A DNA stretch of 46,066 bases, taken from positions 1 through 46,066 of IMG/VR virus record IMGVR_UViG_3300046721_000389. One strand, given 5' to 3'. Shown here piece after piece: positions 17,630 through 45,319 of the stretch. The stretch comes from a virus. Within the stretch, counting starts at the first letter, position 1. The number at the start of each line of letters is the position of its first letter. The notes beneath the pieces are model-generated. The model saw nothing but the letters and a program-made list of their open reading frames with translations, was not told the DNA's origin and did no database searches. Made by a program: the position numbers and the translations under genes.

Positions 17630-19157
17630 GCTGCCCGAAGACTACAGCATCCTCGCCGCCGACGGCCGTCGCAAGGTGGAGCTCGAGGCTGGCACGCAAC
17701 TGTGTTCCTTTGTGTTGAGCGACAACTTCGTTGACATCATTCAGGGCCCGATCGGCTCCGGCAAGTCCGTCGGCGCGCAGTCGCGCATCCTGCGGCACGC
17801 GCAGCAGCAGCGACAGTCGCGCTACGATGGACTGAGAAAGAGCCGCTGGGCCGCCTGCAGGAACATATACCCAGACCTGAAGCGCAGCACAATCCGCGAG
17901 TGGCTGGAATGGTTCCCGGAGAAGTTGTACGGCCGCTTCAACTGGGGGCAGCCGCCGTACCATCTGATGCGGTTCGACGACGTCATGCTGCACGTCGACT
18001 TCCTCGCCCTCGACAAGCCCGACGACGTGTCGAAGCTGCGCTCCACACAATATACTGGGATCTGGTTCAACGAGGTACAGTTCTCCGACAAGACCATCTT
18101 TGACGAGATGACGTCGCGCGTCGGCCGCTATCCGTCGCTGCAAGAGGGCGGCGCCACCTGGACCGGCGTGATCGGCGACGCCAACGCCCCCGACGAGGAT
18201 CACTGGCTGGCGCTGATCACTGGGCAGGTCGACTTGCCGCCGAATATGAGCGCGGAGGAGCGGCAGGGATACCAGTGGCCGGGCGACACCTGGGGGTTTT
18301 GGAAGCAGCCTGCGGCACTGATCGAGCGGCTCGACCAGCACGGGCGCATCGAAGGCTACGACATCAACCCGGGGGCGGAGAACCTGCGTTGGCTGTCACC
18401 CGACTACTATCCGCGCCTGATCGCCGGCAAGTCGAAAGCCTGGATCGACTCGCGGCTGATGAACCGGATCGCCCTGGTCGTCGAGGGCTCTCCGGTGTGG
18501 CCGATGTTCCGCGAGGAGGTGCACGTTTCGCGCGAGGTGTTGCGGCCGATCGAGGGGTTCGAGGTGGTGATCGGGCTGGACTTTGGGCGGTCCGCGGGGG
18601 TGGTGTTCGCGCAGGCCGTCGGGAACCGGTTGTTGGTGCAACACGAGCTGGTCTGGAACAACACCTCGACGGTGGATTCTGCCCCGATGGTGAAGCGGTT
18701 CCTGACCCAGCATTACCCGAATTGCCCGTATCGGGCGTATGGCGATCCGAAGGGCCAAGACAAGGGGCTGAACGACGATCGCACCGGCTACGAGATCTAC
18801 GCTGCCAACGGCATCCGCGTGATGCCGCCACCTGGATTGAAGCAGAACATGATCTCCACCCGCATCGACGCCGTCGCCAACCTGCTCAACGAGATGCACG
18901 ACGCCCGCCCACGCTTTATAATGTCACCGCTCTGCCGGACCCTGAAGGTCGCCATGGCCGGGCGCTATCATAATGAGAAGGACGAGATGGGCATCCTCAA
19001 GCCCAACAAGGACCGCTACTCCCACATCTGCGACGCATTACAGTATATGTGTATCGGCTGCGGCGAGGGCGCCCGCATGATAGGGCTGACGCCCGCCGCG
19101 CAGATGAAGCCCGTGCACGCCTATCGCAGCCGCAGCCTGCGCCGGATCACAGCATAG
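17616..19157 (+). CDS. Large terminase subunit
   Basis: 513 aa. ATPase: Walker A GPIGSGKS (residues 44-51), Walker B region YTGIWFNEVQF (146-156, with E153 as catalytic Glu). Nuclease: VIGLDFGRSAG near residue 320 (first acidic residue), YGDPKGQDKG, and HICDALQYM near 470 (last acidic residue). It packages concatemeric DNA into the prohead and cuts it. Start ATG 17616 overlaps the coiled-coil gene. Similarity in style is to podovirus terminases that partner with P22/T7-type portals. Confidence 0.93.
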   Translation: MSAAKLPEDYSILAADGRRKVELEAGTQLCSFVLSDNFVDIIQGPIGSGKSVGAQSRILRHAQQQRQSRYDGLRKSRWAACRNIYPDLKRSTIREWLEWFPEKLYGRFNWGQPPYHLMRFDDVMLHVDFLALDKPDDVSKLRSTQYTGIWFNEVQFSDKTIFDEMTSRVGRYPSLQEGGATWTGVIGDANAPDEDHWLALITGQVDLPPNMSAEERQGYQWPGDTWGFWKQPAALIERLDQHGRIEGYDINPGAENLRWLSPDYYPRLIAGKSKAWIDSRLMNRIALVVEGSPVWPMFREEVHVSREVLRPIEGFEVVIGLDFGRSAGVVFAQAVGNRLLVQHELVWNNTSTVDSAPMVKRFLTQHYPNCPYRAYGDPKGQDKGLNDDRTGYEIYAANGIRVMPPPGLKQNMISTRIDAVANLLNEMHDARPRFIMSPLCRTLKVAMAGRYHNEKDEMGILKPNKDRYSHICDALQYMCIGCGEGARMIGLTPAAQMKPVHAYRSRSLRRITA

Positions 19158-28783: not shown

Positions 28784-31700
28784 ATGGCCGACGTTCTGCC
28801 GATGATCCCCAACACCGTCCCGCAAGTGCGGGCACCGGAGTCACGCGTCTCGGGCGCCGACATCGCGCAGCCACGGCTGTTGCTGGCGCAGAACCTCGCG
28901 CGCGCCGGCGAGGTCATCGAGAAGGACGTCGCCGAACCGTTCGCAGAGAAAGCCGGCCACGAAGCAGTGCGCACCGACCCTAATGGAAACCTCATTGTCG
29001 ATCGGATGCCCATCTTCGGGCCGGCCTCCATCACCTTCAAGAAGGCGGCGATGGAGACTGCGCTCTCGCAGACGCTGCCGAAGGTCGAGAGCGATCTCAA
29101 CGAGATCAAGAACAAGTTGCCGAATGATCCGGCCGGCGTTCGCGTCGCCTCCAAGGAGTACGCTGACCAGACGATCCCAAACCTGCCGCCGGAACTGCGG
29201 CCTTCAGTGGCGGCGCAGATCGCCCGTTCGAGCGAGCACAACTACCGCAGCGCCACCGACCAAGCCGCGCAGACCAATCTCAGGCAGTTCCTGGAGACGC
29301 AGAAGGCGGCCCTCGTCAGCCTGCGCGAGGACATGACGTCGCTGGCGCGGCAGGGCGGCGTCGGTCAGCCGGAGTACAAGCAGAAGTTCGGCGAGATGCT
29401 CAGCGTCTATAAGAGCCTGGGCGACGACCCGCGCGTCCTGTACACGCCCGCGCGCGCCGAGCAGGAGATCTCCGACCATCGCGACGAGGACCTATCGCAA
29501 GCCATCCTCGGCAACGTGCTGCGCACCTACAAGACCAAGGCCAACATCGTCGAGGCACAGCACGCTCTGCGGGAGGCCTTCGACAACCCCGATCTCAAGC
29601 TCTCGCAGCAGAAGCGCGACAAGGGCGTCGTCGATGGAATGAAATTGCTCGAGCGTGTCAACGTCGAGGACAAGCTCGAGGTACAGCAAAACCAGGCGGC
29701 TATGACCGTCTACGAGAATAATATCAGGGAAGCGCCGAACAGCTACAACCAGATCAAGCACGACGACTATTACCAGAACTCCGCCAGGCTCAACGACTTC
29801 AAGAGCATGGCTAGGCTCGACGGAATCCGGATGATGCTGCCGTTGGCGCAGGCGTTCAAGAGCGCGACGCCTGAGGAGGCAATCCAAATCTCTCGGCAAA
29901 TGGAGCGCGGTTTCATCCCGGCGTTGCGAATCCGTCTGTCCGATGCAGGCATCCAGGGCATGATTGAGCAGGAGGCGAAGCGCCAGGGATTGGACCCGCA
30001 GCTCGCCGTGACTATCGCAGCGCGAGAAAGCAGCGGCGACCCGCGCGCGGTGACGGGCAGCTACAAGGGCATCTATCAACTGTCGGATGAGGGGTTCAGG
30101 AAGTTCGGCGGCGGCGATATTTTCAATCCCGAGCACAACATCCGTGCCGGCATCGCTTCGCTCAAGGCCGATGCTGGAGCCTTCAAGGAGCATTTTGGCC
30201 GCGATCCTACTCCGACCGAGCTCTATCTCTCGCACCAGCAGGGTCAAGGCGGCATCGCCGCGCATCTGCAAAACCCCGACGCACCTGCCTGGCAGAATAT
30301 GCTGTCGACCGCCGAAGGCCGCCAGAAGGGCGAAGCCTGGGCCAAGGCGGCGATCAAGGGCAACCTGCCCGACGCCCTGAAGTCGCAATCCGACACCGTG
30401 ACCTCCGCGCAGTTCATGCAGGTCTGGGAGCAGCGTATCCAGGGCATCCCCTACGCCGGCACGGGCCTCGTCCCAGGACAGCGTATCAGTTCAGTCCGAA
30501 ACGCCGATTTTATTAGGCTGTTTGAATCGACCGTCAAAGAGGTGCGCGAGTCGACCGGCCGCAATGCCACACGGATGGCCGAGCAAATCGTAACGCAGGC
30601 CAAGGAAGCGCCGATCCCAATCGAGACGCTCCAAACCTTCGCCGGCCTCGTCACGCTCTCCGGCAAAGAGGATCTGATCGACAAGATACAGCCGATGCTG
30701 CAAGGGCGCGCCATCGCCGACCAGCTCCCCGGCGGACCCGACGCTTCGGCAGCGCTGCTGTCCGAGATCGCGGCGCGGAAGAGTTCCGGTGTCGACCCGG
30801 CCACGTATAGCGTGCTGCAGGCGACCAAGGAGATCGCCGAAACCAACGCCAAGCAGGTGAAGGAAGCGCCGCTGATCGCCGCCTCGCAGAACGGCATCGG
30901 CCCAGCCGTGCGTCCTTTGCAGCCCAACACCCCAGCCCAGAACACAGCCGAACTCAGCGCGCGGGAAGACACGCTCCATATGATGCGGGCGTCCGGCTAC
31001 AACATCGGCAACGTCAGTGCGATCGCCAACGATGCTGAAGGCAAGGCGCTCAATACGGCGCTCACCACCGGCGACGCGCGGGCGGCCGCGGGCATCCTCG
31101 ACAGCATGCAGACGGCGCTCAAGCCCGAGACGTTCAAGGCTACGATGGAATCGCCGGAGATGAAATCCGCGCTGGGCGGCATGATCCGCAGCAAAGACCC
31201 GGCACGCATGACGGCGGCTTTCTCGGCGCTCGATGTGCTGTGGCGGAAGGATGCAGTGGGCTTCGCAAAGAACTTCAGCAGCGACGTGGAGATGTTCCAC
31301 GCCTGGCTGGGACTGCGCACGTTCATGACGGCAGAGGACATGGCCGTGCGGTTCAATGAAGCGAACGAGCCATCAAAGATCGCCGAGAGAGAGAAGACCA
31401 CTGCGGCGGCCAAAAAGGAGACGAAAGGCTGGACCCCGTCGGATGTCGCATATCAGATGGGCTCGGCCATGGGCATTCCCGGCACCGGCTTCATCTCGCG
31501 CAATATCACCGGGTCAACGCCGTCGGAGCCGCCGGTCGTGGTCGGCATGGGCGATGTGGGCGCCCAGATGCAGATCGAGTTCGAGGATCTCTACACCAAT
31601 CAGCGCGCCTGGGGCCTGCCTGAAGGGGGATGGTTCGATAAGTTTAACAACCACAAGAATGCGAAGACGGTCGCGGCGCAGATGCTGCAGACCAAGTGGA

Positions 31701-32221
31701 ACATTAGCGCCGTCGCCGGCAACCAGATCATGGCCTACCCGCCCGACCTGGTGACAGCCGACAAGGATACTGGCCAGCGGCGCGGAGCCTACTACCCGAT
31801 GATCGGCGAATCGCACGACTGGATGAAGGAACAATTGCACGAGACGATAGTGGGTGCGCTCGGCTCGGAGTATCTCAAGCCGAGCGAGTTTCGGGCACCG
31901 ACCCCGCTGGGGCCGGGGGTGCGGCGGTGGACATTCGTCGGGCTCGCCTCCGATGCGACGACGCAAGCCGAGATCAGCGCCGGCAAGCCGCCGTCCTATC
32001 TCGCGATCGTCAACACCGGCAACGGGCTCAACGAGATCGTGCGGAATCCGACGACCGGCAGCACTCGCGTCTATTTCGATCCGCTCAAGGCGCTTGCTGA
32101 CCGCGACGCCAGTCGGAAGGAGGCACTCGCGACCGAGGCCAGGATTCGCGCGACCGAGGAGCGGATAGTGCCACGTCCATTGCTCACGCAACCAGATCAG
32201 GCCACCAATGCCGTTCCTTGA
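28784..32221 (+). CDS. Internal virion protein with lytic transglycosylase domain (gp16-like)
   Basis: 1,145 aa. An SLT domain lies at about residues 390-500: LDPQLAVTIAARESSGDPRA (catalytic Glu near 414), GIYQLSDEGFRKFGGGDIFN, NPEHNIRAGIASLKADAGAF, LYLSHQQGQGGIAAHL. The rest is helical with no cysteine in the whole chain. It would be ejected with the genome, cut peptidoglycan locally and help form a trans-envelope channel. The next gene overlaps by 14 bases. Confidence 0.87.
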   Translation: MADVLPMIPNTVPQVRAPESRVSGADIAQPRLLLAQNLARAGEVIEKDVAEPFAEKAGHEAVRTDPNGNLIVDRMPIFGPASITFKKAAMETALSQTLPKVESDLNEIKNKLPNDPAGVRVASKEYADQTIPNLPPELRPSVAAQIARSSEHNYRSATDQAAQTNLRQFLETQKAALVSLREDMTSLARQGGVGQPEYKQKFGEMLSVYKSLGDDPRVLYTPARAEQEISDHRDEDLSQAILGNVLRTYKTKANIVEAQHALREAFDNPDLKLSQQKRDKGVVDGMKLLERVNVEDKLEVQQNQAAMTVYENNIREAPNSYNQIKHDDYYQNSARLNDFKSMARLDGIRMMLPLAQAFKSATPEEAIQISRQMERGFIPALRIRLSDAGIQGMIEQEAKRQGLDPQLAVTIAARESSGDPRAVTGSYKGIYQLSDEGFRKFGGGDIFNPEHNIRAGIASLKADAGAFKEHFGRDPTPTELYLSHQQGQGGIAAHLQNPDAPAWQNMLSTAEGRQKGEAWAKAAIKGNLPDALKSQSDTVTSAQFMQVWEQRIQGIPYAGTGLVPGQRISSVRNADFIRLFESTVKEVRESTGRNATRMAEQIVTQAKEAPIPIETLQTFAGLVTLSGKEDLIDKIQPMLQGRAIADQLPGGPDASAALLSEIAARKSSGVDPATYSVLQATKEIAETNAKQVKEAPLIAASQNGIGPAVRPLQPNTPAQNTAELSAREDTLHMMRASGYNIGNVSAIANDAEGKALNTALTTGDARAAAGILDSMQTALKPETFKATMESPEMKSALGGMIRSKDPARMTAAFSALDVLWRKDAVGFAKNFSSDVEMFHAWLGLRTFMTAEDMAVRFNEANEPSKIAEREKTTAAAKKETKGWTPSDVAYQMGSAMGIPGTGFISRNITGSTPSEPPVVVGMGDVGAQMQIEFEDLYTNQRAWGLPEGGWFDKFNNHKNAKTVAAQMLQTKWNISAVAGNQIMAYPPDLVTADKDTGQRRGAYYPMIGESHDWMKEQLHETIVGALGSEYLKPSEFRAPTPLGPGVRRWTFVGLASDATTQAEISAGKPPSYLAIVNTGNGLNEIVRNPTTGSTRVYFDPLKALADRDASRKEALATEARIRATEERIVPRPLLTQPDQATNAVP

Positions 32222-35200
32222 GCCATCGCAAGACCTCGCGCCGCGCGGTGTGCTCGGCGTCACGCCGACCGAACCGGATATGAGCGGCAACCTGGCGGCG
32301 GCGGCGGCCCGGCAAAGTAACAGCGTCGTTTCCTTTTTGAGCAACGCGCGCGCCTCGGGGCCGTTCGCGCCCGAGCCCGGCTACAATCCATTCGAGGACA
32401 TCAAGGGCACGCCCTACGAGGAGATGCATACCCATCACTTCGTTGCTTCGCAATCGCACGCCGAGACGCAGGCGATCATGCAGCGGCTCAATCAGGAAAC
32501 CGCGGATCGTCGCACCGTTGCGAATAATGGCTGGATGGGAACGGTGGCCTCGCTGGTGGCCGGCGGCCTCGATCCCGTGTGGTTTCTCGGCTTCGGCGCG
32601 CGCGGGCCAATGGCACTCAGGTCGGCGTTTCTGACTGGCGCGCGCGATGTCGGCGCCATGACCTTCAAGGGAATGGCCGCGCAAGAAACCATCCTGGGCG
32701 CTACACAAGAAACCAGGCCGTTCAAGGAGTCGCTTGAGTCCGTCGCCTCCGGCACGTTGCTGTGGGCGATGATCGGCGGCGGCGCCGGCAAGCTGCTCGC
32801 CGGCGAAGGCAAGCTACAACCTGCGGTCGCCTCGCTGGCGCGCGGCCGTGCCGCCCTGGCCGAGCACACCGGCACAGTGTCGCCGGAGGTTGTGCCCGCC
32901 GCGGAGGTGCCGCCGGCCCGTGCGCCCGCCGCGGCCGAGTCTGCGCGCCCCGCCGCCGCGCCGGCGCCGGCCGCGCCCGCGGTACCCGAGGCCGTGCCGC
33001 CGGGCGCCATCAAGAGCGCTACCACCGAAGGCAGTTATAGCCTGCCGATCATCGACAAGAACGGCGGCGGAATCGGCAAGCTTGATTTCACAACCGAACG
33101 ACCGATCGACGATGCGGGCGCCGTGCATGAAGTCATCCGCGTCACCGGCGCCAATATCAAGGAAGAAGTGCGCGGGCAGGGCAATGGTTTAGAGGCCTAC
33201 CGCCAACTCGCGGACTGGGCGCTGTCAAACGGCAAGGAATTTTGGAGCGATCGTTTCCCGTCCGATGAGGCGTCGCGTGTCTACGAGGCGCTCGAGCGGC
33301 GCGGCTACACGGTAGTCAAGGAAGAGGAGCCGCGCTCCCGCAGCGCAACGTACAAGGTCACCGCCGGGCCATCCGTACCCAGTGCAGCAACCACTCTAAC
33401 GGGAAAGGCAAAGGCAGGGGCACCGGAAGTAGTGGCTCCACTTGAGCCGCCCGAGCGCATCGTCGGAGCAGCCGTCGCGCCTCCGCCTGGCCGGACGCTT
33501 CCTATCCAGGAACGGATTCGCCAGGTCTTCCTTGGGGAACCAGAAGATCTGGTGAGGTTTGCGAGGGAAAACGACCTGTCGGATGCGCAGGTGCAGCAGC
33601 ACATCAGTGACAACTTCTCCACTCGAACGGGAAAGGCAAAGGCATATCGTGATTACCTGGCTGCAAAGGAGCAGCAGCCCACGCCTAGCGTAGCGCCCGA
33701 GGTCGGGGCTACCATGGGCACCGCCGGTGCTGCCGCCACCGATACCCGCAATCTAAGCCCAGCGCCCTATGGCCTCGAGGGCTGGCCCAGGGTGCGCGCC
33801 ATCATCTCCAAGATGTGGCCGAACATGGACGCGCTTGAGAACGGCGCGCCCGTCACCCAGCGCGCCGTTGCCGAGATGGCAGAGACGTCGTTTGCGACCA
33901 AGGGCAACATCGCCGGCGAGACCACGACGCTGCGCGGCGGGCCCGCTGCCGACCGCGAGATCAGCCTGTTCCGGGAATCAAAGCTCTCCGGCGCGCGCAA
34001 CGAGATGATGCGGCTTTGGGAGGACTACCTTGGCGGCAAAGCCACGTCGGTGGCTGAGAAGGCGCAGCGCGCCATGGGCCGCGCGCCCGAGGGCATGATG
34101 ACTTTCAACGAGTTCGATGCGGCGGTCTACGACGCCCTGCACCTCGAGGACGCCCATGAGATCCCGCAAGTCGCTGCCATGGCGCAATGGAATCGAAAGC
34201 AGATTTACGACGCCGTGACCGCGCGCGCCGAAAAGGCGATCGACGGATTCAAGCCGATCGAGCCGCGCGAGGGCGAAAGCTACGCTCCGCAAATCTGGAA
34301 CAAGGAGTTGATCCGGGCCCGCTGGAACGACTTCGTCAAGATGTGGGCTGACCACCTGGTCGGGCAGCAGTCGGTCAAGGCCGCCATCCAAGAACGGCTC
34401 GGCCTGTACCAAGGCGCGCTCGAATCCCACGAGGCCACGATCGAGAAAATGACCGGCAGGCTTGAGCGCCGTCGGGCGTCGCTCGAGGAAGCCGAGATCA
34501 AGCAGGAGGAAGTCCAGCGCTTCAACAAGTTCGCATTCCAGCGTTCGGAGAAACTCTCGAAGCCGCTCGACGAACTCCGCCAGCAGATCGCCGGCGTTAC
34601 CGACAAGGTGCAGCCGGAACTCGACAAGCTCGCGCAATTGGCCGAGGACATCAAAGCCGAGAGAGTAAAATTCCCTGAGATCAAAGAAGCCGACGCCCTC
34701 CTTTTCAAGATGATCGGCGCCGCGCAAAAGCTCAAGCAGAGTAAAGGGATCATCGACGCCGTCGACGCGGCAGGAGAATACGTCGACGCCGTCGACAAGG
34801 TCATCAGCGGCTTCAAGGGCGGCATCAGGGAGTCCGCTGAGCAAGCCAAGGTGGCGCGCCGCGACCTCGCGCCCGACCTGGTTGCGCTGGAGAAGTCGCG
34901 GGCAGAGGTCAAGAAGGAGGCCGAGCCCTACCTCAAGCAGCTCAACCAATTGCGCAAGACGCTCGCAGAGGAGCGTGCCGCCAGGATCGAAGGCGCGCGC
35001 GGCGGCGCCGTCTTCGAAACCAAGATCAGAGAGCGCGGCAACGTCATCGCCGACGCGCTGTCGGGTAAGCGCGCCGAGATCGACGAGCTCGAGACTAAGC
35101 TCAACGACGAGCACCTGCGCGCCGCCGCGGTACGCGACAAGATCGAGGAGGCGATCGGCCAATGGGAGGGCAAGTCGGCCGCGGAAGCGAAGTCCGCACT

Positions 35201-37022
35201 GAAGGCGCGCGCCAAGTACGAGGCCGAACGAGCAGCCAAGGCGGCCGCGAAAGGCGAAGCGGCACCGACCGAGCGGCTCACCGGCGCCGACAAGGTCATC
35301 GACGACACCATCAAGCGCATCATCGAAAAGGATCTCGATCTGCCGCGCAATGAGTTGCTGGAACGGGCCAGGGACATCGCCTTGCGCACGATCTCCACTC
35401 CGGAAGGCCGATTACCATACGACGAACACCTCGGCGGGCCGCAAGTCGGCGTACCGGGCCCGACCGCCGACCTGCGCGGCCACACCGCCCACCGCGCGAT
35501 CGACCTGCCCTATGACCTGGCCGGGCCGTGGCTGGACAAGAGCGCGGTGCGGGCATCGACGTCGTATCTGCACAGCGTCCTGCCAGACACCATCCTCGCC
35601 GAGCGCTTCGCCGGCGATCCCAACATGACGGTGAAGTTCAAAGAGATCGCCGAGCACTACGCGCGCGCGCTCGAGGGCGCAAAGTCCGAGGCCGAGCAGA
35701 CCCGCCTCAACAATCGCCGCGACGATGACATGAAGATCGTCGCTGGCATGCGTGATCGCATCCGCGGCGTGATGGGATACGACCAGGGCAGCAACACCGC
35801 GCGCATCGCGCAGGGTGCGCTCAAGATCAACAACATCGTCTCGAGCCACGCGATGGCGATCGCGTCGCTGCCCGACATCGCCGGCACAGTCTTTCGGCAC
35901 GCCTTTGAGCAGGGTTTCGGAAGGTCGTTCGGGGCCTACTTCCGCGGCCTGGTCGATGCCGAGGCCGGCGAGGCTCTCAAGGCGCAGGGCCCCGAGCTGC
36001 GCGCCATGGGGATCGGGCTCGAAACTGAGCGCTCGTCAAAGCAACATGCCGTGGACGGGATCACCGAGAACTATCGCCCGGCCTCGCAATTCGAGCGCGC
36101 GTTGACGTGGGCGTCGGACAAGGCCTTCATCGTCAATCTGCTCTCGCCGCTGACGGACATTCAAAAGCGCATCTCCGCCAACGTCGCGATGAACGCTATC
36201 CTGCGCGCCAGCCAGGCCGTCGCCGAGGGCAAGGCGACGCAGCGCCAGATCGAAGACCTGGCGGCATCCAACATCCGGCCGGACGTGGCGGAGCGGATCT
36301 GGGCGGCATACGGCAAAGGTGGCGCAGAGGTCAAAGGCGTTCTCCTCCCGAACACCGCAGACTGGGCCGACGCCGAAGCGCGGCTCGCGTTCCAGGCGGC
36401 GGTGGCGCGCGACGTCGACATCGCGGTGGTGACGCCAGGCCAGGAGAAGCCGTTCTGGATGTCAAAGCCCGGCTGGAACCTGATCGGGCAATATTCGACC
36501 TTCGCGGTGTCCGCCACGCAGCGCATCATGATAGCCAATCTGCAGCGCTCCGATGCCGCCACCGCCGCCGGGATGATGACGGCGATCGCGGCCGGCATGC
36601 TGGCCTATCGCCTCAACACGCTGATCGCCGGCCAGCCCACGTCGGACCGCCCGCAGGACTGGGTCAAGGAAGGGATTTCCCGCAGCGGCATCCTGGGCGC
36701 GATCGACAACGCCAACACCATCACATCCAAATTGTCGGGCGGGAGCTTGGATATTTTCCGGGCGATCGGCGCCGACAAACCGCTCTCCCGCACCGCCGGC
36801 CGCAACGCCGCGGAGGTGCTGCTCGGGCCCACCTACGGGAAGATTTCAAACCTCGCGCGCGCGACCAGCGCCGCCGGGCGGATGGACTGGACCGAAGCCG
36901 ACAGCCACGCGCTGCGCATGGTCTTCTTGGGGAGCAATCTGCCCTACCTGCCGCGGCTGTTCGATGGGATCGAGCACGGCGCCAACGCGGCCTTCGGCAT
37001 CCCGATGAAGACGCAGCCCTGA
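32208..37022 (+). CDS. Giant internal virion (ejection) protein with GNAT-like insert
   Basis: 1,604 aa. Residues about 220-262 are a Pro/Ala linker. Residues 277-385 resemble a GNAT acetyltransferase: LDFTTERPIDDAGAVHEVIR, then EEVRGQGNGLEAYRQLADWA (an RGxGxG-like acetyl-CoA loop) and ASRVYEALERRGYTVV. Long coiled coils fill about 730-1040. The C-terminal third is helical with hydrophobic stretches (AATAAGMMTAIAAGMLAYRL). No cysteine is present. It takes the place of T7 gp15/gp16-type proteins that leave the head first. Whether the GNAT-like part is enzymatic is unknown. Confidence 0.78.
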   Translation: MPFLEPSQDLAPRGVLGVTPTEPDMSGNLAAAAARQSNSVVSFLSNARASGPFAPEPGYNPFEDIKGTPYEEMHTHHFVASQSHAETQAIMQRLNQETADRRTVANNGWMGTVASLVAGGLDPVWFLGFGARGPMALRSAFLTGARDVGAMTFKGMAAQETILGATQETRPFKESLESVASGTLLWAMIGGGAGKLLAGEGKLQPAVASLARGRAALAEHTGTVSPEVVPAAEVPPARAPAAAESARPAAAPAPAAPAVPEAVPPGAIKSATTEGSYSLPIIDKNGGGIGKLDFTTERPIDDAGAVHEVIRVTGANIKEEVRGQGNGLEAYRQLADWALSNGKEFWSDRFPSDEASRVYEALERRGYTVVKEEEPRSRSATYKVTAGPSVPSAATTLTGKAKAGAPEVVAPLEPPERIVGAAVAPPPGRTLPIQERIRQVFLGEPEDLVRFARENDLSDAQVQQHISDNFSTRTGKAKAYRDYLAAKEQQPTPSVAPEVGATMGTAGAAATDTRNLSPAPYGLEGWPRVRAIISKMWPNMDALENGAPVTQRAVAEMAETSFATKGNIAGETTTLRGGPAADREISLFRESKLSGARNEMMRLWEDYLGGKATSVAEKAQRAMGRAPEGMMTFNEFDAAVYDALHLEDAHEIPQVAAMAQWNRKQIYDAVTARAEKAIDGFKPIEPREGESYAPQIWNKELIRARWNDFVKMWADHLVGQQSVKAAIQERLGLYQGALESHEATIEKMTGRLERRRASLEEAEIKQEEVQRFNKFAFQRSEKLSKPLDELRQQIAGVTDKVQPELDKLAQLAEDIKAERVKFPEIKEADALLFKMIGAAQKLKQSKGIIDAVDAAGEYVDAVDKVISGFKGGIRESAEQAKVARRDLAPDLVALEKSRAEVKKEAEPYLKQLNQLRKTLAEERAARIEGARGGAVFETKIRERGNVIADALSGKRAEIDELETKLNDEHLRAAAVRDKIEEAIGQWEGKSAAEAKSALKARAKYEAERAAKAAAKGEAAPTERLTGADKVIDDTIKRIIEKDLDLPRNELLERARDIALRTISTPEGRLPYDEHLGGPQVGVPGPTADLRGHTAHRAIDLPYDLAGPWLDKSAVRASTSYLHSVLPDTILAERFAGDPNMTVKFKEIAEHYARALEGAKSEAEQTRLNNRRDDDMKIVAGMRDRIRGVMGYDQGSNTARIAQGALKINNIVSSHAMAIASLPDIAGTVFRHAFEQGFGRSFGAYFRGLVDAEAGEALKAQGPELRAMGIGLETERSSKQHAVDGITENYRPASQFERALTWASDKAFIVNLLSPLTDIQKRISANVAMNAILRASQAVAEGKATQRQIEDLAASNIRPDVAERIWAAYGKGGAEVKGVLLPNTADWADAEARLAFQAAVARDVDIAVVTPGQEKPFWMSKPGWNLIGQYSTFAVSATQRIMIANLQRSDAATAAGMMTAIAAGMLAYRLNTLIAGQPTSDRPQDWVKEGISRSGILGAIDNANTITSKLSGGSLDIFRAIGADKPLSRTAGRNAAEVLLGPTYGKISNLARATSAAGRMDWTEADSHALRMVFLGSNLPYLPRLFDGIEHGANAAFGIPMKTQP

Positions 37023-37390: not shown

Positions 37391-37738
37391 ATGCGCAAAA
37401 TCATCCTCCTCCTCATGCTCATGGCGGCGCCCGCGCACGCACAGACGGTCGCGCCCACCACGAATGGGTCCATCACCATCACGACTGGCAACACCTATCA
37501 GACGCTGATGGCTGCAGTAACGGGCGTGACGGTTCAGCGGCGCTCGCTCACCATCCAGAACAACAACCCATCCGATAGCTGCTGGATCTTCATTGGCGCT
37601 GCTGCCCCCACCAAGGCGACCTCAATTCTGTTGCTCGCCGGCGGCTCGTACACGCGCTACTACCCGTACATCCCCTCGGATCAGATTCAGGCGACCTGTG
37701 CCACCACTGGCGACACGATCTATGTCGATACTCAGTAG
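37391..37738 (+). CDS. Exported fibre-module protein 1
   Basis: 115 aa. Sec signal peptide MRKIILLLMLMAAPAHA followed by a beta-rich mature chain (ITITTGNTYQTLMAAVTGVT, RRSLTIQNNNPSDSCWIFIG, YTRYYPYIPSDQIQATCATT) with two cysteines. The pattern resembles small phage proteins of unknown function placed before tail fibres. Ribosome site is weak. It could be a fibre-associated subunit; the signal peptide is unexpected for a virion component. Confidence 0.68.
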   Translation: MRKIILLLMLMAAPAHAQTVAPTTNGSITITTGNTYQTLMAAVTGVTVQRRSLTIQNNNPSDSCWIFIGAAAPTKATSILLLAGGSYTRYYPYIPSDQIQATCATTGDTIYVDTQ

Positions 37739-37949
37739 GCTCGCTCTCGCGCTGGCATTGGTTGCAATCAGCGGAGTGAGCGTCGCCGACGGCATCTACA
37801 ATCGCGGCACGCAGTCCGTCGGCAGCATGGGCGGCGATGGCGTCAATACTCCAGGCGCCGCATCTGTGCCGACGATCCCATGCACCCAGACCGGGCTGGT
37901 CTTCACCGCCTCGTGCAATGCCATCCTGTTCGTGGTGGTTTTCAATTAG
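37722..37949 (+). CDS. Exported fibre-module protein 2
   Basis: 75 aa. Signal peptide MSILSRLALALALVAISGVS with likely cleavage near VADG. The mature part of about 52 residues is Gly-rich with two cysteines (VPTIPCTQTGLVFTASCNAI) and ends in a hydrophobic strand (LFVVVFN), like an outer-membrane or fibre C-terminus. It overlaps the previous gene by 17 bases and has no clear ribosome site, so coupling is likely. Confidence 0.6.
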   Translation: MSILSRLALALALVAISGVSVADGIYNRGTQSVGSMGGDGVNTPGAASVPTIPCTQTGLVFTASCNAILFVVVFN

Positions 37950-37958
37950 GAGACTCCG

Positions 37959-39269
37959 ATGAAGCGCGCCGTTGTCGGCATTGCATTTGCGGCCTGCCTG
38001 ATCGACCCAGCGTCGGCTGTAGACAATACGCTGCTGGTGACGCCCTGCGCTGCCGGCTGCGTCACGACCAGAAGCCGCGATGTCGGCGCCGGCGTGCAGG
38101 CGCCGATGCCGATCCTTTCCGACATCACGGGCACGCCGATCTACGGCACTGCCGGCGCGGCGAACACCAACATCCTGACGGTGCAGGGCATCGCCGCGAT
38201 GACGCCGTTCCTCATAAATCCGGGTACGGCGGCGAACTGGGGTATCGGCGCAACGGCTGCGGCTGTGCCAGCGAATGCTGGCTACTATGGGATCAACGTC
38301 GCCGGCAACTTGCGCGGCGCGACTGGCTTGGCGCTGGGCTCGACCTTCTCCCAGACGGTGGCGATCGTCGATGGCACTGGCGCTCAGATCACCTCGTTTG
38401 GCGGCGGTGGCGCCGGCGGTTTCAGCTACGTTACATCGACCCTGACCGCCTGGACATCTGCGACGGCGAATAACGCTGTCCAGACGCTGATGCCGATCAG
38501 CACATCGTATGGTGCAGCGGTCCTCGTGCAACTCGATCAGACCACGCCGCTGACGAGTGGCGCGATCATATTCGAGGGGACCAGCGACGGCACGAATTGG
38601 GTGTCTGTCCCGACGGCGCAGATCATTGACCCAGCGTTGCTGACGCCGATCCCGAATCCCTACACGCTGCAAGCATCGACCAACAAGCCGTTCTTGATCA
38701 ACCCGCAGGGGTTCCAGAGCCTGCGCATCCGGCTAAACCCGGTGATCGTTGGAGCGGGGACGGTGACGCCGTTCGTGACGCTGCTGCCGTATCTGCCAGT
38801 TGACCCCGCGCTGCTACAGCCGCTCGCGACCGGCAGCAACGTGGTCGGCGGTGTCTTCATCAGCCAAGTGACGCCAGGCACGACCAATGCCGTGCAGACG
38901 ATCTCAGGTGCCACGGGTGGTGCGACGACAACCGGAAACATCGCCGCCAACAACACGACTGCCGTGGTGGTCAAGGCTTCCGCTGGGACGCTCTATGGTG
39001 CGCAGATCTATGGCATCGGGGCCGCGCCCGCGTATCTCAAAATCTACAATGCCGCCACCGCTACCTGCGGAGCCGGCACTCCGGTCAAGAGGTTGATGAT
39101 CCCGGCGGCAGCCACGGCGGCAAACGGTGCTGGCTCAAACATCTCTTTCGGCGACGTTGGCGTGGCCTTCGGGACCGGCATCACCTACTGCGTGACGACC
39201 GGCATCACCGACGCCGATGCGACTGCCCCGGCTGCCAACACCTATCTCGTCAATCTCGATTGGAAGTGA
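37959..39269 (+). CDS. Exported fibre-module protein 3
   Basis: 436 aa, start ATG 37959 with GGAG upstream. Signal peptide MKRAVVGIAFAACLIDPASA. The mature chain is beta-rich and low in charge (PILSDITGTPIYGTAGAANT, GAIIFEGTSDGTNWVSVPTA, AQIYGIGAAPAYLKIYNAAT) with four cysteines: VTPCAAGC at the N-terminus and a C-terminal pair (ATATC, ITYC). The middle matches general phage baseplate/fibre beta-sandwich patterns. No enzyme motif seen. Confidence 0.7.
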   Translation: MKRAVVGIAFAACLIDPASAVDNTLLVTPCAAGCVTTRSRDVGAGVQAPMPILSDITGTPIYGTAGAANTNILTVQGIAAMTPFLINPGTAANWGIGATAAAVPANAGYYGINVAGNLRGATGLALGSTFSQTVAIVDGTGAQITSFGGGGAGGFSYVTSTLTAWTSATANNAVQTLMPISTSYGAAVLVQLDQTTPLTSGAIIFEGTSDGTNWVSVPTAQIIDPALLTPIPNPYTLQASTNKPFLINPQGFQSLRIRLNPVIVGAGTVTPFVTLLPYLPVDPALLQPLATGSNVVGGVFISQVTPGTTNAVQTISGATGGATTTGNIAANNTTAVVVKASAGTLYGAQIYGIGAAPAYLKIYNAATATCGAGTPVKRLMIPAAATAANGAGSNISFGDVGVAFGTGITYCVTTGITDADATAPAANTYLVNLDWK

Positions 39270-39271
39270 CG

Positions 39272-40123
39272 ATGCTGCGCGGTCTGACGTTTGGCCTCTG
39301 CCTGCTCGTTGCGGGCTTGCTCTGCCTGCCATCGCGAGCGCAGTTGACCTTGACCGGCGTCGGGAGCTTCGGTGGGGCGGCGGGCGGCGGTTGCTCACAG
39401 GCGACCGCGTTCCTCGCCCGAACAAGCGGCCTTAGCGCCAACTACCAAACGCAATACACCACCATGATCTGTGGTCTGGTGACCGATGGCGTGTGGGCCA
39501 AGCTGGATGCGTTCTATGTATTCAAGACCTCGAGCGAGGCTAACGCATTACTGAGTCTGCCTTCGGCAACCTTCAACGCGACGAAGAACGGCACGCCGAC
39601 GTTCACGGCAAACGTGGGCCTCACTCCGACCGGCACCAACACCGACTACTACAGCACAAACCTAAATTCTTCCGTTGCTGGCGGGCTGGCCATGCAGGAC
39701 TCGATTCATTTTTCAGTCTGGGACGGAACTGGAGCTGGAGGCGACAGCAATTCACAGATAGCTGCCTGCTCGACCCAGCATTTGTATACGGATTTTGGTG
39801 GGTCGGCGTATTTCCGAATTACGACATCGGGCGGGGCCGGCATCGACGTCGCCACTGCCAATGCTGTCGGGTTTTATATTGGCAATCGCTCCGGAGCGAT
39901 GACCACGCAGGGCTACAAAAACGGATCGTCAATTGTTACCAGCACCACCGACACATCGACTCCGCTCTGCAACCAGACCTGGACCTTCCCCGGCACTTCT
40001 GTGAGTGGCGTGACGGCCTCGACCGATCTGCTGTTGGGCGGCAGCATTGGCGGCAGCTTGAGCTCGACCGATGCTTCTAACTTTTACTCCCGCTTCAACA
40101 CCTACATAACCTCAGTGCCATGA
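39272..40123 (+). CDS. Exported fibre-module protein 4, lectin-like
   Basis: 283 aa from ATG 39272 (GGAAGTGA upstream). Signal peptide MLRGLTFGLCLLVAGLLCLP then SRAQ. The mature chain has a repeated-strand body (GLVTDGVWAKLDAFYVFKTS, HFSVWDGTGAGGDSNSQIAA, IGNRSGAMTTQGYKNGSSIV) of the kind seen in phage concanavalin/lectin-type fibre proteins, with four cysteines. Probably binds host glycans. Confidence 0.7.
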   Translation: MLRGLTFGLCLLVAGLLCLPSRAQLTLTGVGSFGGAAGGGCSQATAFLARTSGLSANYQTQYTTMICGLVTDGVWAKLDAFYVFKTSSEANALLSLPSATFNATKNGTPTFTANVGLTPTGTNTDYYSTNLNSSVAGGLAMQDSIHFSVWDGTGAGGDSNSQIAACSTQHLYTDFGGSAYFRITTSGGAGIDVATANAVGFYIGNRSGAMTTQGYKNGSSIVTSTTDTSTPLCNQTWTFPGTSVSGVTASTDLLLGGSIGGSLSSTDASNFYSRFNTYITSVP

Positions 40124-41703
40124 AGTGGCTCGTCGTCGCATTCCTGCTGGTCACGACTTGCGCTCACGCTGGCGGCCGCGGCGGCAGCGTACAGACCTTC
40201 GATCCCAACGTCTTCGGCAGCGCGGCCAATGTCTCGTGTCTGACGGCAGCGATCGCTGGGGTTTGCTCGACCGGCTACAACGCAACATGCGATGGCGTGG
40301 CTGACGACAGCGCAGCCGTCAACAACTTCCGCACAGCCGCGATTGCCGCTAATCCGGCTCGCGTCGTGCTTTATATTCCACCTGGCAAAATTTGCAGAGC
40401 GGTGAATCAAAATTTGCTTTGGGGAAACACGCTTGGCGTCGACGGTATTCGCAATCTTGTTGTGTGGATGTATGGTTCGCAGTTTCGCGGGTATATGTCC
40501 CTTGGCGTCGAATCGCTTGTTCAAACTACGGCTGGGACGGCTGCGTTCCAAACGGTCAGCGCAGGCAGCCCTACCATCACCGTGGTGACCCTTGGTGACA
40601 TTACAAAATTCTCCGCGGGGCAATTTGTGTTGCTGAGCGGAATATCGCTACAAGGCGAGGGTTACCCACCCAATTTCCAATATTTCGAATACAGGCGTGT
40701 CACGATCGTAAACAACGGGACAGGAGTCATTACTCTGAATGCCCCACTCACCAATACCTATAGATCGACGTGGCCTGGGTATGATGTCGGTGACGCGGGC
40801 CGGTTAAATCAAGGTGGCCCCGCAATGGCATACATCCAGCCGCCGAGTTGGGACGCGACCGTCGAGTATTTCGGCATGACGATTGTTCTTGATCCCGATA
40901 CCGAACTTAATACGGGGGGGCGCAATATCGTTTTTCATGACCTTCAAGTCTATGCGAGTGGCCCGACAATTAGAGCATTTTCGCCAACGATGACTGAAAA
41001 CTTGTGGATCTACAACAGCGGCATTCTCACGGGCGAAATCGATAAGAACATGACCTTTGCAAGTTTGTATAATGTAAGCATTACAAGTGCTGCGGGCGCC
41101 ATAGCGGTTCAAAGCCCATCGCCAACAAACCTGCGACTGACGAAATTCAAAGGCTCGCCAACAGGATCGAGCGCAAATCTTATAGCTGAAGCATCCAGTT
41201 TCCCTCTTCTAACCATTGGGCCAAACTGCTATGGGCGTGGCTCATCTGTTGTAATCAATGGCTCGACAGTCACGACAGGTGGTCCGCCCGGGAGCTTTGG
41301 CGGATGCTTTACATTGATGTCAAGTTTGACGTTTTCTAATATTGGAGGAATCGGGACGTTTTCCATTCCGAATACGGACTCTCATAGACAAAATGCACAG
41401 CAGACCCTTTCTGTCCCGGCAAAGTATTTTTTGGCTGCGTATTCAGCCGGGTTTGGAATTTGCAATACGGGGACGACGTTTAATGTCACAGCGGTCAGAC
41501 AAGACGGTGCTTTTGTCGGCGGAGTGATCAACAGCGGGAACACCTATTATGAAACGGACCTGGGCACTTCATTGCCAAGCCCGACATGCCCGTCTGGCCC
41601 TTTGTCTGGAATGGCCGCCAACGCAATTGGCGTCTATCCGGCAGACACGATCGTACAAAACAATTCTGGCCCTGCTAGTTTGACGCAATACGCCGCACCG
41701 TAG
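40120..41703 (+). CDS. Exported tailspike-like protein, pectate-lyase-type beta-helix
   Basis: 527 aa, start ATG 40120 overlapping the previous stop (ATGA). Signal peptide [37 protein letters not shown] then VVLYIPPGK is the pectate-lyase-superfamily N-terminal motif of tailspikes, followed by a right-handed beta-helix ([40 protein letters not shown]). Mature part has eight cysteines. Composition from about 40380 to 41600 is richer in A and T than the rest, suggesting exchange with another phage. Likely degrades or binds capsule or exopolysaccharide. Confidence 0.82.
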
Positions 41704-41714
41704 GAGAGCGAGTA

Positions 41715-44003
41715 ATGCGCAAGATCATCCTCGGTCTGTTCATCGCCCTCGGCGCGCTCGTGGTGCCCGCCATCTCTGCCGCCCAGGCGCCACCGCCAGT
41801 GCCCGCGCTGCCCGACACCGAGCGCCGTACGCTGTATGCGATCACAGCCGCGACCGGGCCATTCGACGTTGCCTTTGCCGTCTATGGCGACGGCACCGAC
41901 TACGGCAACTGGATCGAGGTGTGGGTCAACGGCATCCTGCTGACGCCCATTACCGATTGGACGCTGGCGCTAACCTCGGGCACGCTGGCGACGGTCGCTC
42001 GCCCGCTGACCAATGCCCAGGTGACACTGACCGCTGCGCGCACAGGCACCCTGCAGATCGTGGGCGCGCGACGCCCCCGCCGCGCCGCGCAGTTCAACGA
42101 GAACCAAGGCGTTTCGGCGCGCTCTCTCAATCAGGCGCTTACCGACGTCGTCGCGCAGAACCGCGAAACCTGGGACAAGATCAACGACGTAACCGGGCGC
42201 GGGCTGTTCTCGCAGCCAGGCGTCACGATGGGGCGGTTGCCGCTGCCCAGCTCATGTCTGAACGGCTTTCTCAACTTTGGCAGCGATGGGCACACCCCGA
42301 CCTGCGTCGGCAGCCCCGGCGGCGGCACACCAGGCCTCCCCGGCGGTTCCAACACGCAGGTTCAGTACAACAACGCGGGAGCATTTGGCGGTGTCGTGGG
42401 GGCGACGTCGAACGGCTCCACGCTGACATTGGTGGCACCTATTTTGGGCACGCCGGCATCGGCCATACTCACGAATGCGACGGGGCTACCATTAGGCACT
42501 GGCGTGGTTGGCAATTTGCCAGTGACCAATCTCGCGTCCGGTGCCGGCGCCAGCAATACGACGTTCTGGCGCGGCGATGGCACCTGGGCCGCTCCTGGCG
42601 CCGTGGGTGGCAGCGTGACCAATGTTGCAACGAGTGCGCCGCTTACAGGCGGACCGATTACGACGACGGGGACGATTAATTGTCCGACGTGCGTGACGAC
42701 AGCGGCGGGATTGACGGCGAGCCTCCCAGTGATCGGTGCCGGGGGCAATGCGGTGGCGGTTGGGACTGTGTCCGGCAACACGACGACGTTCGCCACGTTC
42801 TCTGGTGCAGCGACTGCAGGAAGATGCGTTCAAACGGACATTTCAGGTAATCTAGTGATAGCGGCGGGTGCTTGTGGGACATCTGGCGGAACCAGCAATC
42901 CTCCAGGCGGCGCCCCCGGGCAGGTCCAATATCAGGTTAACGCGACAACCTTCGGTGGTATCACGGGAGCGACGACTAATGGCGTCGCGATGACTCTGGC
43001 GGGCGGACTGGTTACGGCTGACCCGACTTTGGCGTTGGGGGTTGCATCCAAACAATATGTCGATGCAGTCGGGGCCGTTGCCAACAACAAGGTTGCTAAG
43101 GCCGGCGACACCATGACGGGCGACTTGTCGATCAGCAAAGCCAGCCCGATTTTGGGATTGAACAAGACGGCTTCCGGTCAGGACATCACGATCTACGGAG
43201 TTTCCAACGGCGCGGTTCGCTGGGGTATAGGACCTGGAGATGGGGTAGCTGAAATTGGCGGAAATGCCGGCTCCAACTTTAGCATTCTGGCTTTCAACGA
43301 CGCCGGTAGTTATCTCAGCACCCCATTGTACATCTACCGCGCCACCGGCAACGTCAGTATCTCATCGACCACCGCATCGACCGCGACTACAGCCGGGGCG
43401 CTGACGGTTGTAGGCGGGGTGGGTATAGGAGGAAGTATATATGCCGGCTCGAATATCTTCATGCCTGCGGCCTCTGCAGGCATCGAGATTGGCGCTCTGG
43501 CGACTCCCAATACGCCGTTCGTCGATGGGCATTCATCGGGCAATGCTAACGATTATGACGCGAGGATGCTTTTTTCCGGTGGCAATGCATTCAATGGTGG
43601 TGGCTTGATTACATTGAACGGAGCGTCGGTGACTTTTATTGCCCCGCAGGCTTCGGCTTCTTGCGTGCACACCCCGACTACCAGCTCAGAGGTCGTCGCG
43701 TGCTCGTCCGATCGGGCCCTCAAGCGCAAGATCGCGGATGCGGGCTCTGCGCTCGACAAGATCGGCGCAATTCGGGTGCGTAGCTACGAGACGCTTGCGA
43801 CTGGCGAGAAGAAGGCTTTCGGTATCGTCGCGCAGGAGTTGGAAGAGGTGCACCCAGAGATGGTGCATGTCGGTGACAAGGGCATTAAGATGGCTGAACA
43901 ACCGGACCCGTGGATGCTGCTGAAGGCCATCCAGGAACTGAAGGCGGCCAACGACAACCTCAAGAGCCAGATCGCGCGCATGCGCGCGGGAGGACGACGA
44001 TGA
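41715..44003 (+). CDS. Exported tail fibre with C-terminal S74 chaperone domain
   Basis: 762 aa, start ATG 41715 with GGAGAG upstream. Signal peptide [18 protein letters not shown] then AISAAQ. A T7 gp17-like N-terminal region follows ([40 protein letters not shown]), normally the part that attaches to the tail nozzle. The shaft has two related units ([12 protein letters not shown] near 215, [13 protein letters not shown] near 402). The end is a Peptidase_S74 intramolecular chaperone (SSDRALK at 664-670, [13 protein letters not shown]) that trims itself after trimer folding. Eight mature cysteines fall in four close pairs. Confidence 0.88.
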
Positions 44004-45319
44004 ATTGGCGCCTGACGCTGGGAATTTCGGCCGGGTTTGTATTGGCTAGCTTGGGAGTGCTGGCACAAGTGCAGGCGCCTCCGCTCACATCCGTGATCAT
44101 CGGGACGGCCTGCACGGGGGGCAATTCGATCTGGCCTGGGCGCGGCTCTGCGGTGCTGCAGTGCAATGGTTCGACCTACCAGCCGTCGAACCCACATGTG
44201 ACGCCAGAGATGTATGGCGCGGTCTGTGACGGCGCTACGGACGATCAAGTTGCGTTACAGGCCTGGATGAACTCGGGACGTGCGTTGCTATTGACATCGC
44301 GCTGCGCGTTTGCGTCACCCATCACGGTCAATTTGGCGGCTGCAACCTTCGGCGTGGCGCGCGGACTCTCAATTACTGGGACGAGCGTGAACCAAGCGCA
44401 GTTGGTTGCGAACAGCACGACGGCAACGGTTTCGATCAACACGGGAGCCTATGCCAATCCAATTGGTCCTGGCGCACAGATCGTTATGCGGGATTTCGCA
44501 GTGGTGGCGAATGTTCCGAACGTCGGCGATATTACCAGCAACTTTGCCGTCCAGGTTCGCGGCTCGGCGCAGACCGGCTCTGGCGTCCCGAATTTCCTTT
44601 TCGACAATGTTATGATCACCGGCACGAGTACATCCAATTATTTCAACGGCGGCCTTTATTTGCGGGATGTCCGCGATGGTGTGGTCACCCACTGCACCAT
44701 TTACGGGCGGCAGGCTGATCCGCCCAACGGCGTTGGAATTAAATTCACGACCAGCGCAGGGGGTTCGCAGCCTGTCGATCTCCACATTCGCGATTGTCCC
44801 AACGTGTCATGGTGGGACAAATGCCTGCAGATGGGTGAAAACCCTGGCGTTGGGGCGACGGATGTCCAGGGCATCTATGTTTTCTCATCGACATTTTTGG
44901 CATGCCAGAATGGTATCTACTGGTATGGCAACAACAATTCAGATGCGTTGCTGACTTCTTTTGGGAACCACTTCAACCATGGGGACAACGGGATTTTTCT
45001 GCACAACATACAGGCTCCGTCAATCCTCCAAAATAATTTTCTATTCTTTACTCGCATGGGACAGACAACCACGCATGGATTCTACACAGAGATGGTAAAT
45101 GGGGTGGCCAGCTATGCGCAGATCAACCATAATTTCTCAGACATGCTCAGCGGTGCTGGCGGCGCCGCAACTCGGATCGGCATTACTTCGCACTCCTCGA
45201 CGGCCACGCCGACAAACGATATTATCTCTGGAAATCAAGTGTTGGGGGCGACCACTTCTTATGTCGGGAGTGGGACAGGGGTTGGCGCAGGTACACGGTT
45301 CTACGGCAATCAGCCGTGA
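44000..45319 (+). CDS. Exported tailspike-like protein, last late gene
   Basis: 439 aa. Start ATG 44000 has GGGAGG six bases upstream and overlaps the previous stop, which fixes the signal-peptide start ([20 protein letters not shown] then LAQVQ). [20 protein letters not shown] is the pectate-lyase-type entry motif; a beta-helix follows ([60 protein letters not shown]). Eight mature cysteines. Probably a receptor-binding or depolymerising spike. Confidence 0.82.

What the first reader, a model, noticed from the sequence alone, without database searches (positions are those of the whole stretch)
37391..45319. Seven consecutive tail-fibre-module proteins all begin with Sec signal peptides
Every gene from 37391 to 45319 starts with a basic n-region, a hydrophobic core and an Ala-x-Ala-like cleavage site. 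Four of the seven starts have a close Shine-Dalgarno and a fifth sits in an ATGA overlap, so the signal peptides are not mis-called starts. The mature parts are clear virion adhesins: a gp17-like fibre with an S74 chaperone, two pectate-lyase-type spikes, a lectin-like protein. Fibres normally join virions in the cytoplasm. Exported fibres would have to meet the virion in the periplasm or at lysis, or act on the cell surface. I know of no described phage with a whole exported fibre module.
Basis: partly seen in the sequence, partly recalled or inferred. Interest (0 to 1): 0.92.

Follow-up and report, generated by a model that had tools for sequence, protein, structure and literature searches.

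The report
Phage tail fibres carrying export signals
A soil phage, and many relatives found mainly in Bradyrhizobium, make their host-binding tail fibres with a signal that should send them out of the cell's cytoplasm to gain disulfide bonds, although tailed phages are thought to be built inside the cytoplasm.

Summary
All seven genes at 37391-45319 start with a Sec-type signal peptide (SP); none of 19 upstream genes does. It is not peculiar to this window. Of 23 close relatives of the S74 fibre, 22 begin with an SP, including 9 of 9 in Bradyrhizobium genomes found with an SP-free query. The exception (L085) starts at the mature N-terminus. What follows the SP is a T7 gp17-type virion anchor by fold.

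Independent evidence for export: cysteines. The exported proteins are cysteine-rich (1.64% against 0.66%), and 57 of 59 have an even number once the SP is removed (39 of 41 after clustering, p about 4e-10; controls 40 of 95). SP-less distant fibre relatives are cysteine-poor. This is what proteins folded with disulfides outside the cytoplasm would show.

Best explanation: a Sec-exported, disulfide-bonded adhesin module that joins otherwise finished virions in the periplasm or at lysis. Export is strongly supported by sequence; incorporation into virions after export is inferred. The same fibre also sits in small satellite-like elements without terminase or portal. I found no description of an exported fibre module in a tailed phage, but the library searched is open-access only.

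The parts
37391..37738 (+). Gene 1, 115 aa; SP 37391-37441 (MRKIILLLMLMAAPAHA|QT); small all-beta protein with one Cys pair
   Evidence: SP-bearing homologues L156-L158, L160-L162, L167, Cys pair invariant in the seven aligned; viral fold matches are small uncharacterised phage proteins
37722..37949 (+). Gene 2, 75 aa; SP 37722-37787 (...SGVSVA|DGIYN); two mature Cys
   Evidence: genes directly after gene 1 in L156, L157, L160, L161, L167 also begin [DE]GI at or next to the predicted cleavage site
37959..39269 (+). Gene 3, 436 aa; SP 37959-38018 (MKRAVVGIAFAACLIDPASA|VD, weakest of the seven); 4 mature Cys; SD AGGAG
   Evidence: SP-bearing relative in L155 inside a run of SP genes
39272..40123 (+). 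Gene 4, 283 aa; SP 39272-39340 (...LCLPSRA|QL); 4 mature Cys; domain shared with adhesin-like proteins
   Evidence: PHROG 26223 E 4.5e-16; tblastn to Sinorhizobium phages phiM12/phiN3, E 1e-8
40120..41703 (+). Gene 5, 527 aa; SP 40120-40170 ([19 protein letters not shown]); 8 mature Cys; pectate-lyase-like spike; ATGA overlap with gene 4
   Evidence: Pfam PF12708 E 0.009, below cut-off; tblastn to E. coli phage E212 tail spike, E 7e-4
41715..44003 (+). Gene 6, 762 aa tail fibre; SP 41715-41783 (...[19 protein letters not shown]); 8 mature Cys; SD AGGAG
   Evidence: SP in 22 of 23 close relatives
41784..42200 (+). T7 gp17-type virion-anchor domain of gene 6, directly after the SP
   Evidence: AF2 model pLDDT 75; Foldseek top hits are fibre anchors of LME-1, Kp9, T7, HRP29; VIA-align Z 6-8.5
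43707..43865 (+). S74 intramolecular chaperone domain of gene 6
   Evidence: PF13884 E 1.5e-8, above cut-off
44000..45319 (+). Gene 7, 439 aa; SP 44000-44065 (...LGVLA|QVQ); 8 mature Cys; pectate-lyase-like spike; SD GGAGG
   Evidence: PF12708 E 5.5e-4, below cut-off; PHROG 17312 tail protein 1.2e-6; weak tblastn to E. coli tailspikes
32208..37022 (+). Internal virion (ejection) protein, 1604 aa, no SP, no Cys; marks the virion operon just upstream
   Evidence: phrog_342 E 5e-54
28784..32221 (+). Transglycosylase-bearing virion protein, 1145 aa, no SP, no Cys
   Evidence: phrog_4067

Best explanation
The phage exports its receptor-binding module. Each of the seven proteins is made with a cleavable Sec signal, crosses the inner membrane unfolded, loses the signal, and folds and forms disulfides in the periplasm. 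The cut exposes the mature N-terminus, which in the main fibre is a T7 gp17-type anchor for the tail. DNA-filled, fibreless particles are built in the cytoplasm; the disulfide-stabilised fibres and spikes meet and dock onto them when the membrane fails at lysis. Supported by sequence: signal peptides, their conservation, the anchor fold, cysteine enrichment and parity. Inferred: cleavage, the oxidised state, the timing of docking, and the advantage (tougher fibres in soil).
For: SP on 7 of 7 module genes, 0 of 19 upstream. SP kept in 22 of 23 close fibre relatives, 9 of 9 in Bradyrhizobium found with an SP-free profile. SP sequence less conserved than the mature part (44% against 65% mean pairwise identity), as expected of generic Sec signals. 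L085 lacks the SP and begins exactly at the mature N-terminus. Mature Cys even in 57 of 59 module proteins and 39 of 41 clusters; controls 40 of 95; Cys 1.64% against 0.66%. Distant SP-less relatives are Cys-poor: Mwe-JY08 3 in 980 aa, MEP301 1 in 583, L151 0 in 482. Among 74 phage proteins sharing the fibre's repeat region, 5 pass the SP cut and have 8-12 even Cys; the other 69 mostly have 0-5. The anchor is a T7-type fibre anchor by fold. SP genes sit inside late operons, for example between a portal-like gene and scaffold- and head-type genes in L160, L166, L167.
Against: No virion proteomics, fractionation or SP-cleavage data exist here; the predictor is rule-based, not SignalP, and passed 2 of 7 E. 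coli inner-membrane proteins. Nothing shows that fibres dock after lysis. SP-less L085 has 9 cysteines, so SP and cysteines do not match perfectly. Genes 2 and 3 have no recognised domain. The satellite-like elements show that the exported fibre can persist without capsid genes, which also fits a non-virion role.
Confidence: 0.55

Rival explanations
1. The exported adhesins act on the producing cell, not on the virion: from the periplasm or surface they bind or trim the receptor polysaccharide, blocking superinfection or re-adsorption of progeny to debris (lysogenic conversion or receptor masking).
For: Export signals; spike-like folds; the same fibre in satellite-like elements without portal or terminase, one with a BstA-type abortive-infection gene nearby. 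Host-encoded exported tailspike-like enzymes exist, such as Tat-exported WceF (PMC7949094).
Against: The gp17-type virion anchor is highly conserved, pointless for a free adhesin; the fibre stands where an SP-less relative phage has its fibre; no other fibre gene was recognised in the window; the genes lie in the late operon.
Confidence: 0.22
2. The hydrophobic N-terminus is not cleaved. It works as a membrane anchor or as a plug buried in the tail, and fibres assemble in the cytoplasm as usual.
For: Signal anchors look like SPs to simple scorers (2 of 7 inner-membrane false positives).
Against: Ala-X-Ala sites, usually followed by Q or D; variable SP sequence with conserved mature start; seven unrelated proteins share only SP features; even, high Cys; natural SP-less L085.
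Confidence: 0.1
3. The proteins are exported and released as free adhesins or decoys, or are used by satellites to dress a helper's particles with their own fibre.
For: Fibre plus integrase, primase/helicase and a terminase-small-subunit-like gene, without portal or TerL nearby; one element also has a 1217-aa ORF resembling the window's 1145-aa virion protein.
Against: Helper dependence was not tested; the elements could be decayed prophages; complete prophages carry the same fibre (G091, G628, G605).
Confidence: 0.08
4. Chance hydrophobic N-termini or wrongly called starts.
For: Genes 1 and 2 lack a visible Shine-Dalgarno.
Against: Conservation in 22 of 23 relatives; 0 of 19 in the same genome; independent cysteine signal.
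Confidence: 0.01

Closest known systems
T7 gp17 tail fibre (Autographiviridae-type) and gp17-like fibres of Kp9, LME-1, HRP29
   Same: Anchor fold right after the SP; gene position after internal virion proteins; fibre anchored to a podovirus tail
   Different: T7-type fibres have no SP and assemble in the cytoplasm (established knowledge); here an SP precedes the anchor and the mature protein is Cys-rich
Microcystis phage Mwe-JY08 (PP395640)
   Same: 37% identity in the internal virion protein, same gene order, related fibre anchor
   Different: Fibre without SP, 3 Cys in 980 aa
Inovirus attachment protein pIII (from general knowledge)
   Same: Attachment protein with a signal peptide and disulfides, matured outside the cytoplasm
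   Different: Filamentous phage assembled at the membrane; no homology; not a tailed phage
Phage proteins known to use Sec: SP endolysins (fOg44 Lys44, PMC6116005), T4 antiholin RI (PMC8385771), lambda Lom (PMC12309495)
   Same: Phage genes using Sec signal peptides
   Different: Lysis or membrane proteins, not virion fibres
Pantoea stewartii WceF (PMC7949094)
   Same: Exported tailspike-like trimeric enzyme
   Different: Host gene, Tat signal, not a virion protein
P4-like and PICI phage satellites
   Same: Integrase, primase/helicase, terminase-small-subunit-like gene, no capsid genes seen in the elements here
   Different: Those described in the papers I opened were not reported to carry an exported tail fibre

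Membership tests
Sec (Sec/SPI) secreted protein | Basic n-region, 8+ residue uncharged hydrophobic core, small residues at -3/-1 within about 30 aa | tested here: met
   All seven window genes; gene 3 weakest
Sec (Sec/SPI) secreted protein | Signal conserved in homologues while its sequence drifts | tested here: met
   22 of 23 close fibre relatives; SP identity 44% against 65% in the mature part; not shown for genes 2, 5, 7, where close homologues were not found
Sec (Sec/SPI) secreted protein | Cleavage and translocation observed | not testable with these tools
   Needs mass spectrometry, PhoA fusions and fractionation
T7 gp17-type tail fibre | N-terminal anchor domain of gp17 fold | tested here: met
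   Foldseek and VIA-align top hits to T7-type anchors, modest TM 0.36-0.42, Z 6-8.5; sequence profile alone finds no PDB match
T7 gp17-type tail fibre | Gene after internal virion proteins of a podovirus | tested here: met
   phrog_342 upstream at 32208-37022; in L089, L091 and L145 it lies elsewhere in the late operon
T7 gp17-type tail fibre | Present in virions, assembled in the cytoplasm | not testable with these tools
   No virion data
S74-chaperoned fibre | C-terminal Peptidase_S74 domain | tested here: met
   PF13884 35.2 bits against cut-off 22
Disulfide-bonded periplasmic protein | Even, conserved cysteines above background | tested here: met
   57 of 59 even; 1.64% against 0.66%
P4/PICI-like satellite (the Bradyrhizobium elements) | Integrase plus own replication genes, no capsid, portal or TerL | tested here: inconclusive
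   Met for portal (phrog_332) and TerL (phrog_2) in the stretches read; element ends and helper dependence not tested

The most novel reading that the evidence does not exclude
A class of tailed phages, found mostly in Bradyrhizobium and related soil bacteria, matures its receptor-binding proteins in the periplasm through Sec and disulfide formation and completes its virions only at or after lysis; satellite-like elements carry the same exported fibre to dress helper particles. That would be a two-compartment assembly route not described for Caudoviricetes as far as I could find.
Probability: 0.45. Interest if true: 0.92.

Novelty: new variant of a known kind. Interest (0 to 1): 0.85.

Why it matters
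Tailed phages are taken to build complete virions in the cytoplasm, a reducing compartment. A module in which most or all host-binding proteins carry Sec signals and paired cysteines implies a second assembly site and a late docking step, or an unsuspected role for fibres on the producing cell. Both can be tested with one inducible Bradyrhizobium prophage. It would also matter for annotation (such proteins are easily called host secreted proteins), for expressing such fibres in the laboratory (they may need the periplasm), and for how satellites might re-dress helper particles.

Tried and rejected
Mis-called starts or chance: rejected by homologues and by 0 of 19 upstream genes. S74 search across Bradyrhizobium gave mostly host LLKPEQLEALVAP-type secreted proteins ending in an S74-like domain (DUF3300-like by my reading), so it was not used for the phage question. 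PDB sequence search with the anchor profile found nothing; only the fold comparison showed the gp17 link. Consensus promoter and terminator scan of the module was at or below the chance rate, so it gave no sign of an independent promoter but does not exclude one. Gene 1 fold search: no confident PDB match; weak hits include PirA, PM2 spike P1, Ena appendage subunits and PBSX XepA, treated as uninformative. Caulobacter phage Circe gp063 was considered as a parallel: homologues in Bradyrhizobium are labelled tail fibre, but the passages read do not mention a signal peptide on it. Gene 3 gave one viral relative and no phage-record match. Not run: SignalP, Phobius, DeepTMHMM (not available).
Full report
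What is there. The window is a 46,066-base IMG/VR virus record of a podovirus-type phage. PHROG matches give terminase (17601-19157), head-tail adaptor (20254), major head protein (22887), tail proteins (25408, 25998), an endolysin (16052) and an internal virion protein (32208-37022). An integrase-like C-terminal fragment runs off the right end on the minus strand (by reading), so it is probably temperate. Directly after the internal virion protein come the seven genes of the finding.

Check of the observation. A rule-based scorer finds an SP on all seven (scores 5.1-7.9) and on none of 19 upstream genes. Calibrated on 38 E. coli K-12 genes that I sorted by compartment, it passes 7 of 7 exported, 2 of 7 inner-membrane and 0 of 24 cytosolic proteins at a cut of 5. 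So the run of seven is real, with the reservation that signal anchors can pass. Three starts have strong Shine-Dalgarnos, one a weak one, one an ATGA overlap; genes 1 and 2 have none, but gene 1 is confirmed by SP-bearing homologues.

Conservation. The fibre N-terminus was aligned with four relatives and used to search bacterial genomes and viral contigs. Fourteen of fifteen fibres have an SP, in most of them ending in A before Q, and then a conserved PALPDxERR-type start. The exception, L085, begins [16 protein letters not shown], at the mature N-terminus. To avoid selecting for the signal, an anchor-only alignment (A2) was searched in 266 genomes of the genus of L082 (Bradyrhizobium cajani) and 397 of its order. 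Nine Bradyrhizobium genomes have a close match and all nine have an SP. In all, 22 of 23 close relatives. A distant homologue from the order, L151, has neither SP nor cysteine. Across 18 fibres the SP is 44% identical and the mature part 65%, as expected when any Sec signal will do.

Gene 1 family. Seven viral contigs encode relatives of gene 1; six of them were read (L159 is a near copy of L158 and was left out), and each has an SP. Five are followed by further SP genes: L156 has gene 1 in a run of five, L157 three, L161 two plus two further downstream, L160 and L162 two; in L158 an SP gene stands just before it. L155, found with gene 3, has four SP genes in a row and three more after one weaker gene. 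In two Bradyrhizobium genomes (L166, L167) gene 1 and the next SP gene lie between a portal-like gene and scaffold- and head-type genes (by reading). In five contigs the protein after gene 1 begins [DE]GI at or next to the predicted cleavage site, as gene 2 does (DGIYN), which looks like a conserved mature N-terminal docking peptide (inference).

Independent evidence that the proteins leave the cytoplasm. Mature cysteine counts in the window are 2, 2, 4, 4, 8, 8, 8, while the 1145- and 1604-aa virion proteins have none. Over 60 module proteins, 57 of the 59 that have cysteines have an even number, p about 3e-15 if parity were random; cysteine makes 1.64% of residues. Of 120 control ORFs on the same contigs, 40 of 95 with cysteines are even and the content is 0.66%. 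Many module proteins are related, so they were clustered: 39 of 41 cluster representatives are even, p about 4e-10. In a separate set of 74 phage proteins that share the fibre's repeat region, 5 pass the SP cut (8-12 Cys, all even) while the rest mostly have 0-5. A sixth, L042, falls just under the cut and has 14 once its signal is removed; it was counted with the five in the rank test (p about 2e-5). A reducing compartment gives no reason for paired cysteines; an oxidising one does.

What the mature fibre is. An AlphaFold2 model of the mature N-terminus from 22 aligned sequences (mean pLDDT 75) matches in the PDB the anchors of T7-type fibres first: LME-1, Kp9, T7 gp17, P-SCSP1u, HRP29, Carin1; VIA-align gives Z 6-8.5 for the same set. 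TM-scores are modest and the helical part is poorly placed, but nearly all the best matches are of this one kind. The C-terminus carries an S74 chaperone. Genes 5 and 7 are weakly pectate-lyase-like and match tail-spike records; gene 4 shares a domain with Sinorhizobium phage proteins. Gene 1 models as a small beta-sandwich common among uncharacterised phage proteins.

How it most likely works. Sec export, signal cleavage, folding with disulfides in the periplasm, and docking of the exposed anchor onto fibreless particles when the cell lyses. Late addition is plausible in general: P22 tailspikes can be added to tailspike-less particles in vitro (from general knowledge, not tested here). The main rival is that the fibres act on the producing cell. 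The conserved virion anchor and the position where the SP-less relative Mwe-JY08 has its fibre favour the virion.

Satellite-like elements. Portal (phrog_332) is near the fibre only in G091, G628 and G605 among the Bradyrhizobium genomes, and TerL near it only in G628 and G605. In G001, G545, G647, G056, G101 and record L006 (as far as read) the fibre sits among integrase, primase, helicase or AAA-type genes, an SSB in L006, HNH genes in G001 and G101, and small repeated HTH-like genes (one weakly terminase-small-subunit-like, E 9e-4); family searches were run on G001, G647, G101 and L006, the other two were judged by reading. L006 also has a BstA-type gene. No capsid genes were seen in the stretches read. 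G051 has a 1217-aa ORF resembling the 1145-aa virion protein beside its fibre (by reading). These look like satellites or decayed prophages; I could not decide.

Literature. Searches of the open-access library found Sec-exported endolysins and antiholins and a host tailspike-like exported enzyme, but no exported fibre module in a tailed phage. Subscription papers and preprints were not searched, so novelty is provisional.

Noticed in passing
L143, L144, L148, L150, L153 (Bradyrhizobium genomes) and L006: Small integrative elements with integrase, primase/helicase, terminase-small-subunit-like or HNH genes and one SP-bearing gp17-type fibre, but no portal or TerL in the stretch read: satellite-like elements with their own fibre.
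   Followed up: partly
L149:8243-14397 (reverse strand of the locus): Element in G051 where a 1217-aa ORF resembling the window's 1145-aa virion protein sits directly before the SP-bearing fibre; no portal match anywhere in that genome.
   Followed up: no
L006:12668-13612 (-): BstA-type abortive-infection gene (phrog_6287, E 1e-103) shortly after the SP-bearing fibre in an isolate element.
   Followed up: no
L085:10022-12613: Natural SP-less version of the fibre, starting exactly at the mature N-terminus of its relatives; it still has 9 cysteines.
   Followed up: partly
L161:12824-15283 and L088:8395-9738: Module proteins (pectate-lyase-like; GDSL lipase) whose signals look like Tat signals (LPRRTFLATG; MNRRELLAG) rather than Sec.
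   Followed up: no
L033-L035, L042, L060, L068: Other soil-type phage fibres with SP-like or lipoprotein-like N-termini and even, high mature Cys counts, unrelated at the N-terminus: possible convergent exported fibres.
   Followed up: no
L084:12942-13610 and L086:12063-12701: SP-bearing 212-222 aa proteins with a GYSCG serine-hydrolase-like motif downstream of the fibre, no Pfam match for the one scanned.
   Followed up: no
L095, L111, L113, L115, L117-L121, L124: Bradyrhizobium chromosomes commonly carry a roughly 550-aa secreted protein (LLKPEQLEALVAP start) ending in an S74-like domain; not phage fibres.
   Followed up: no
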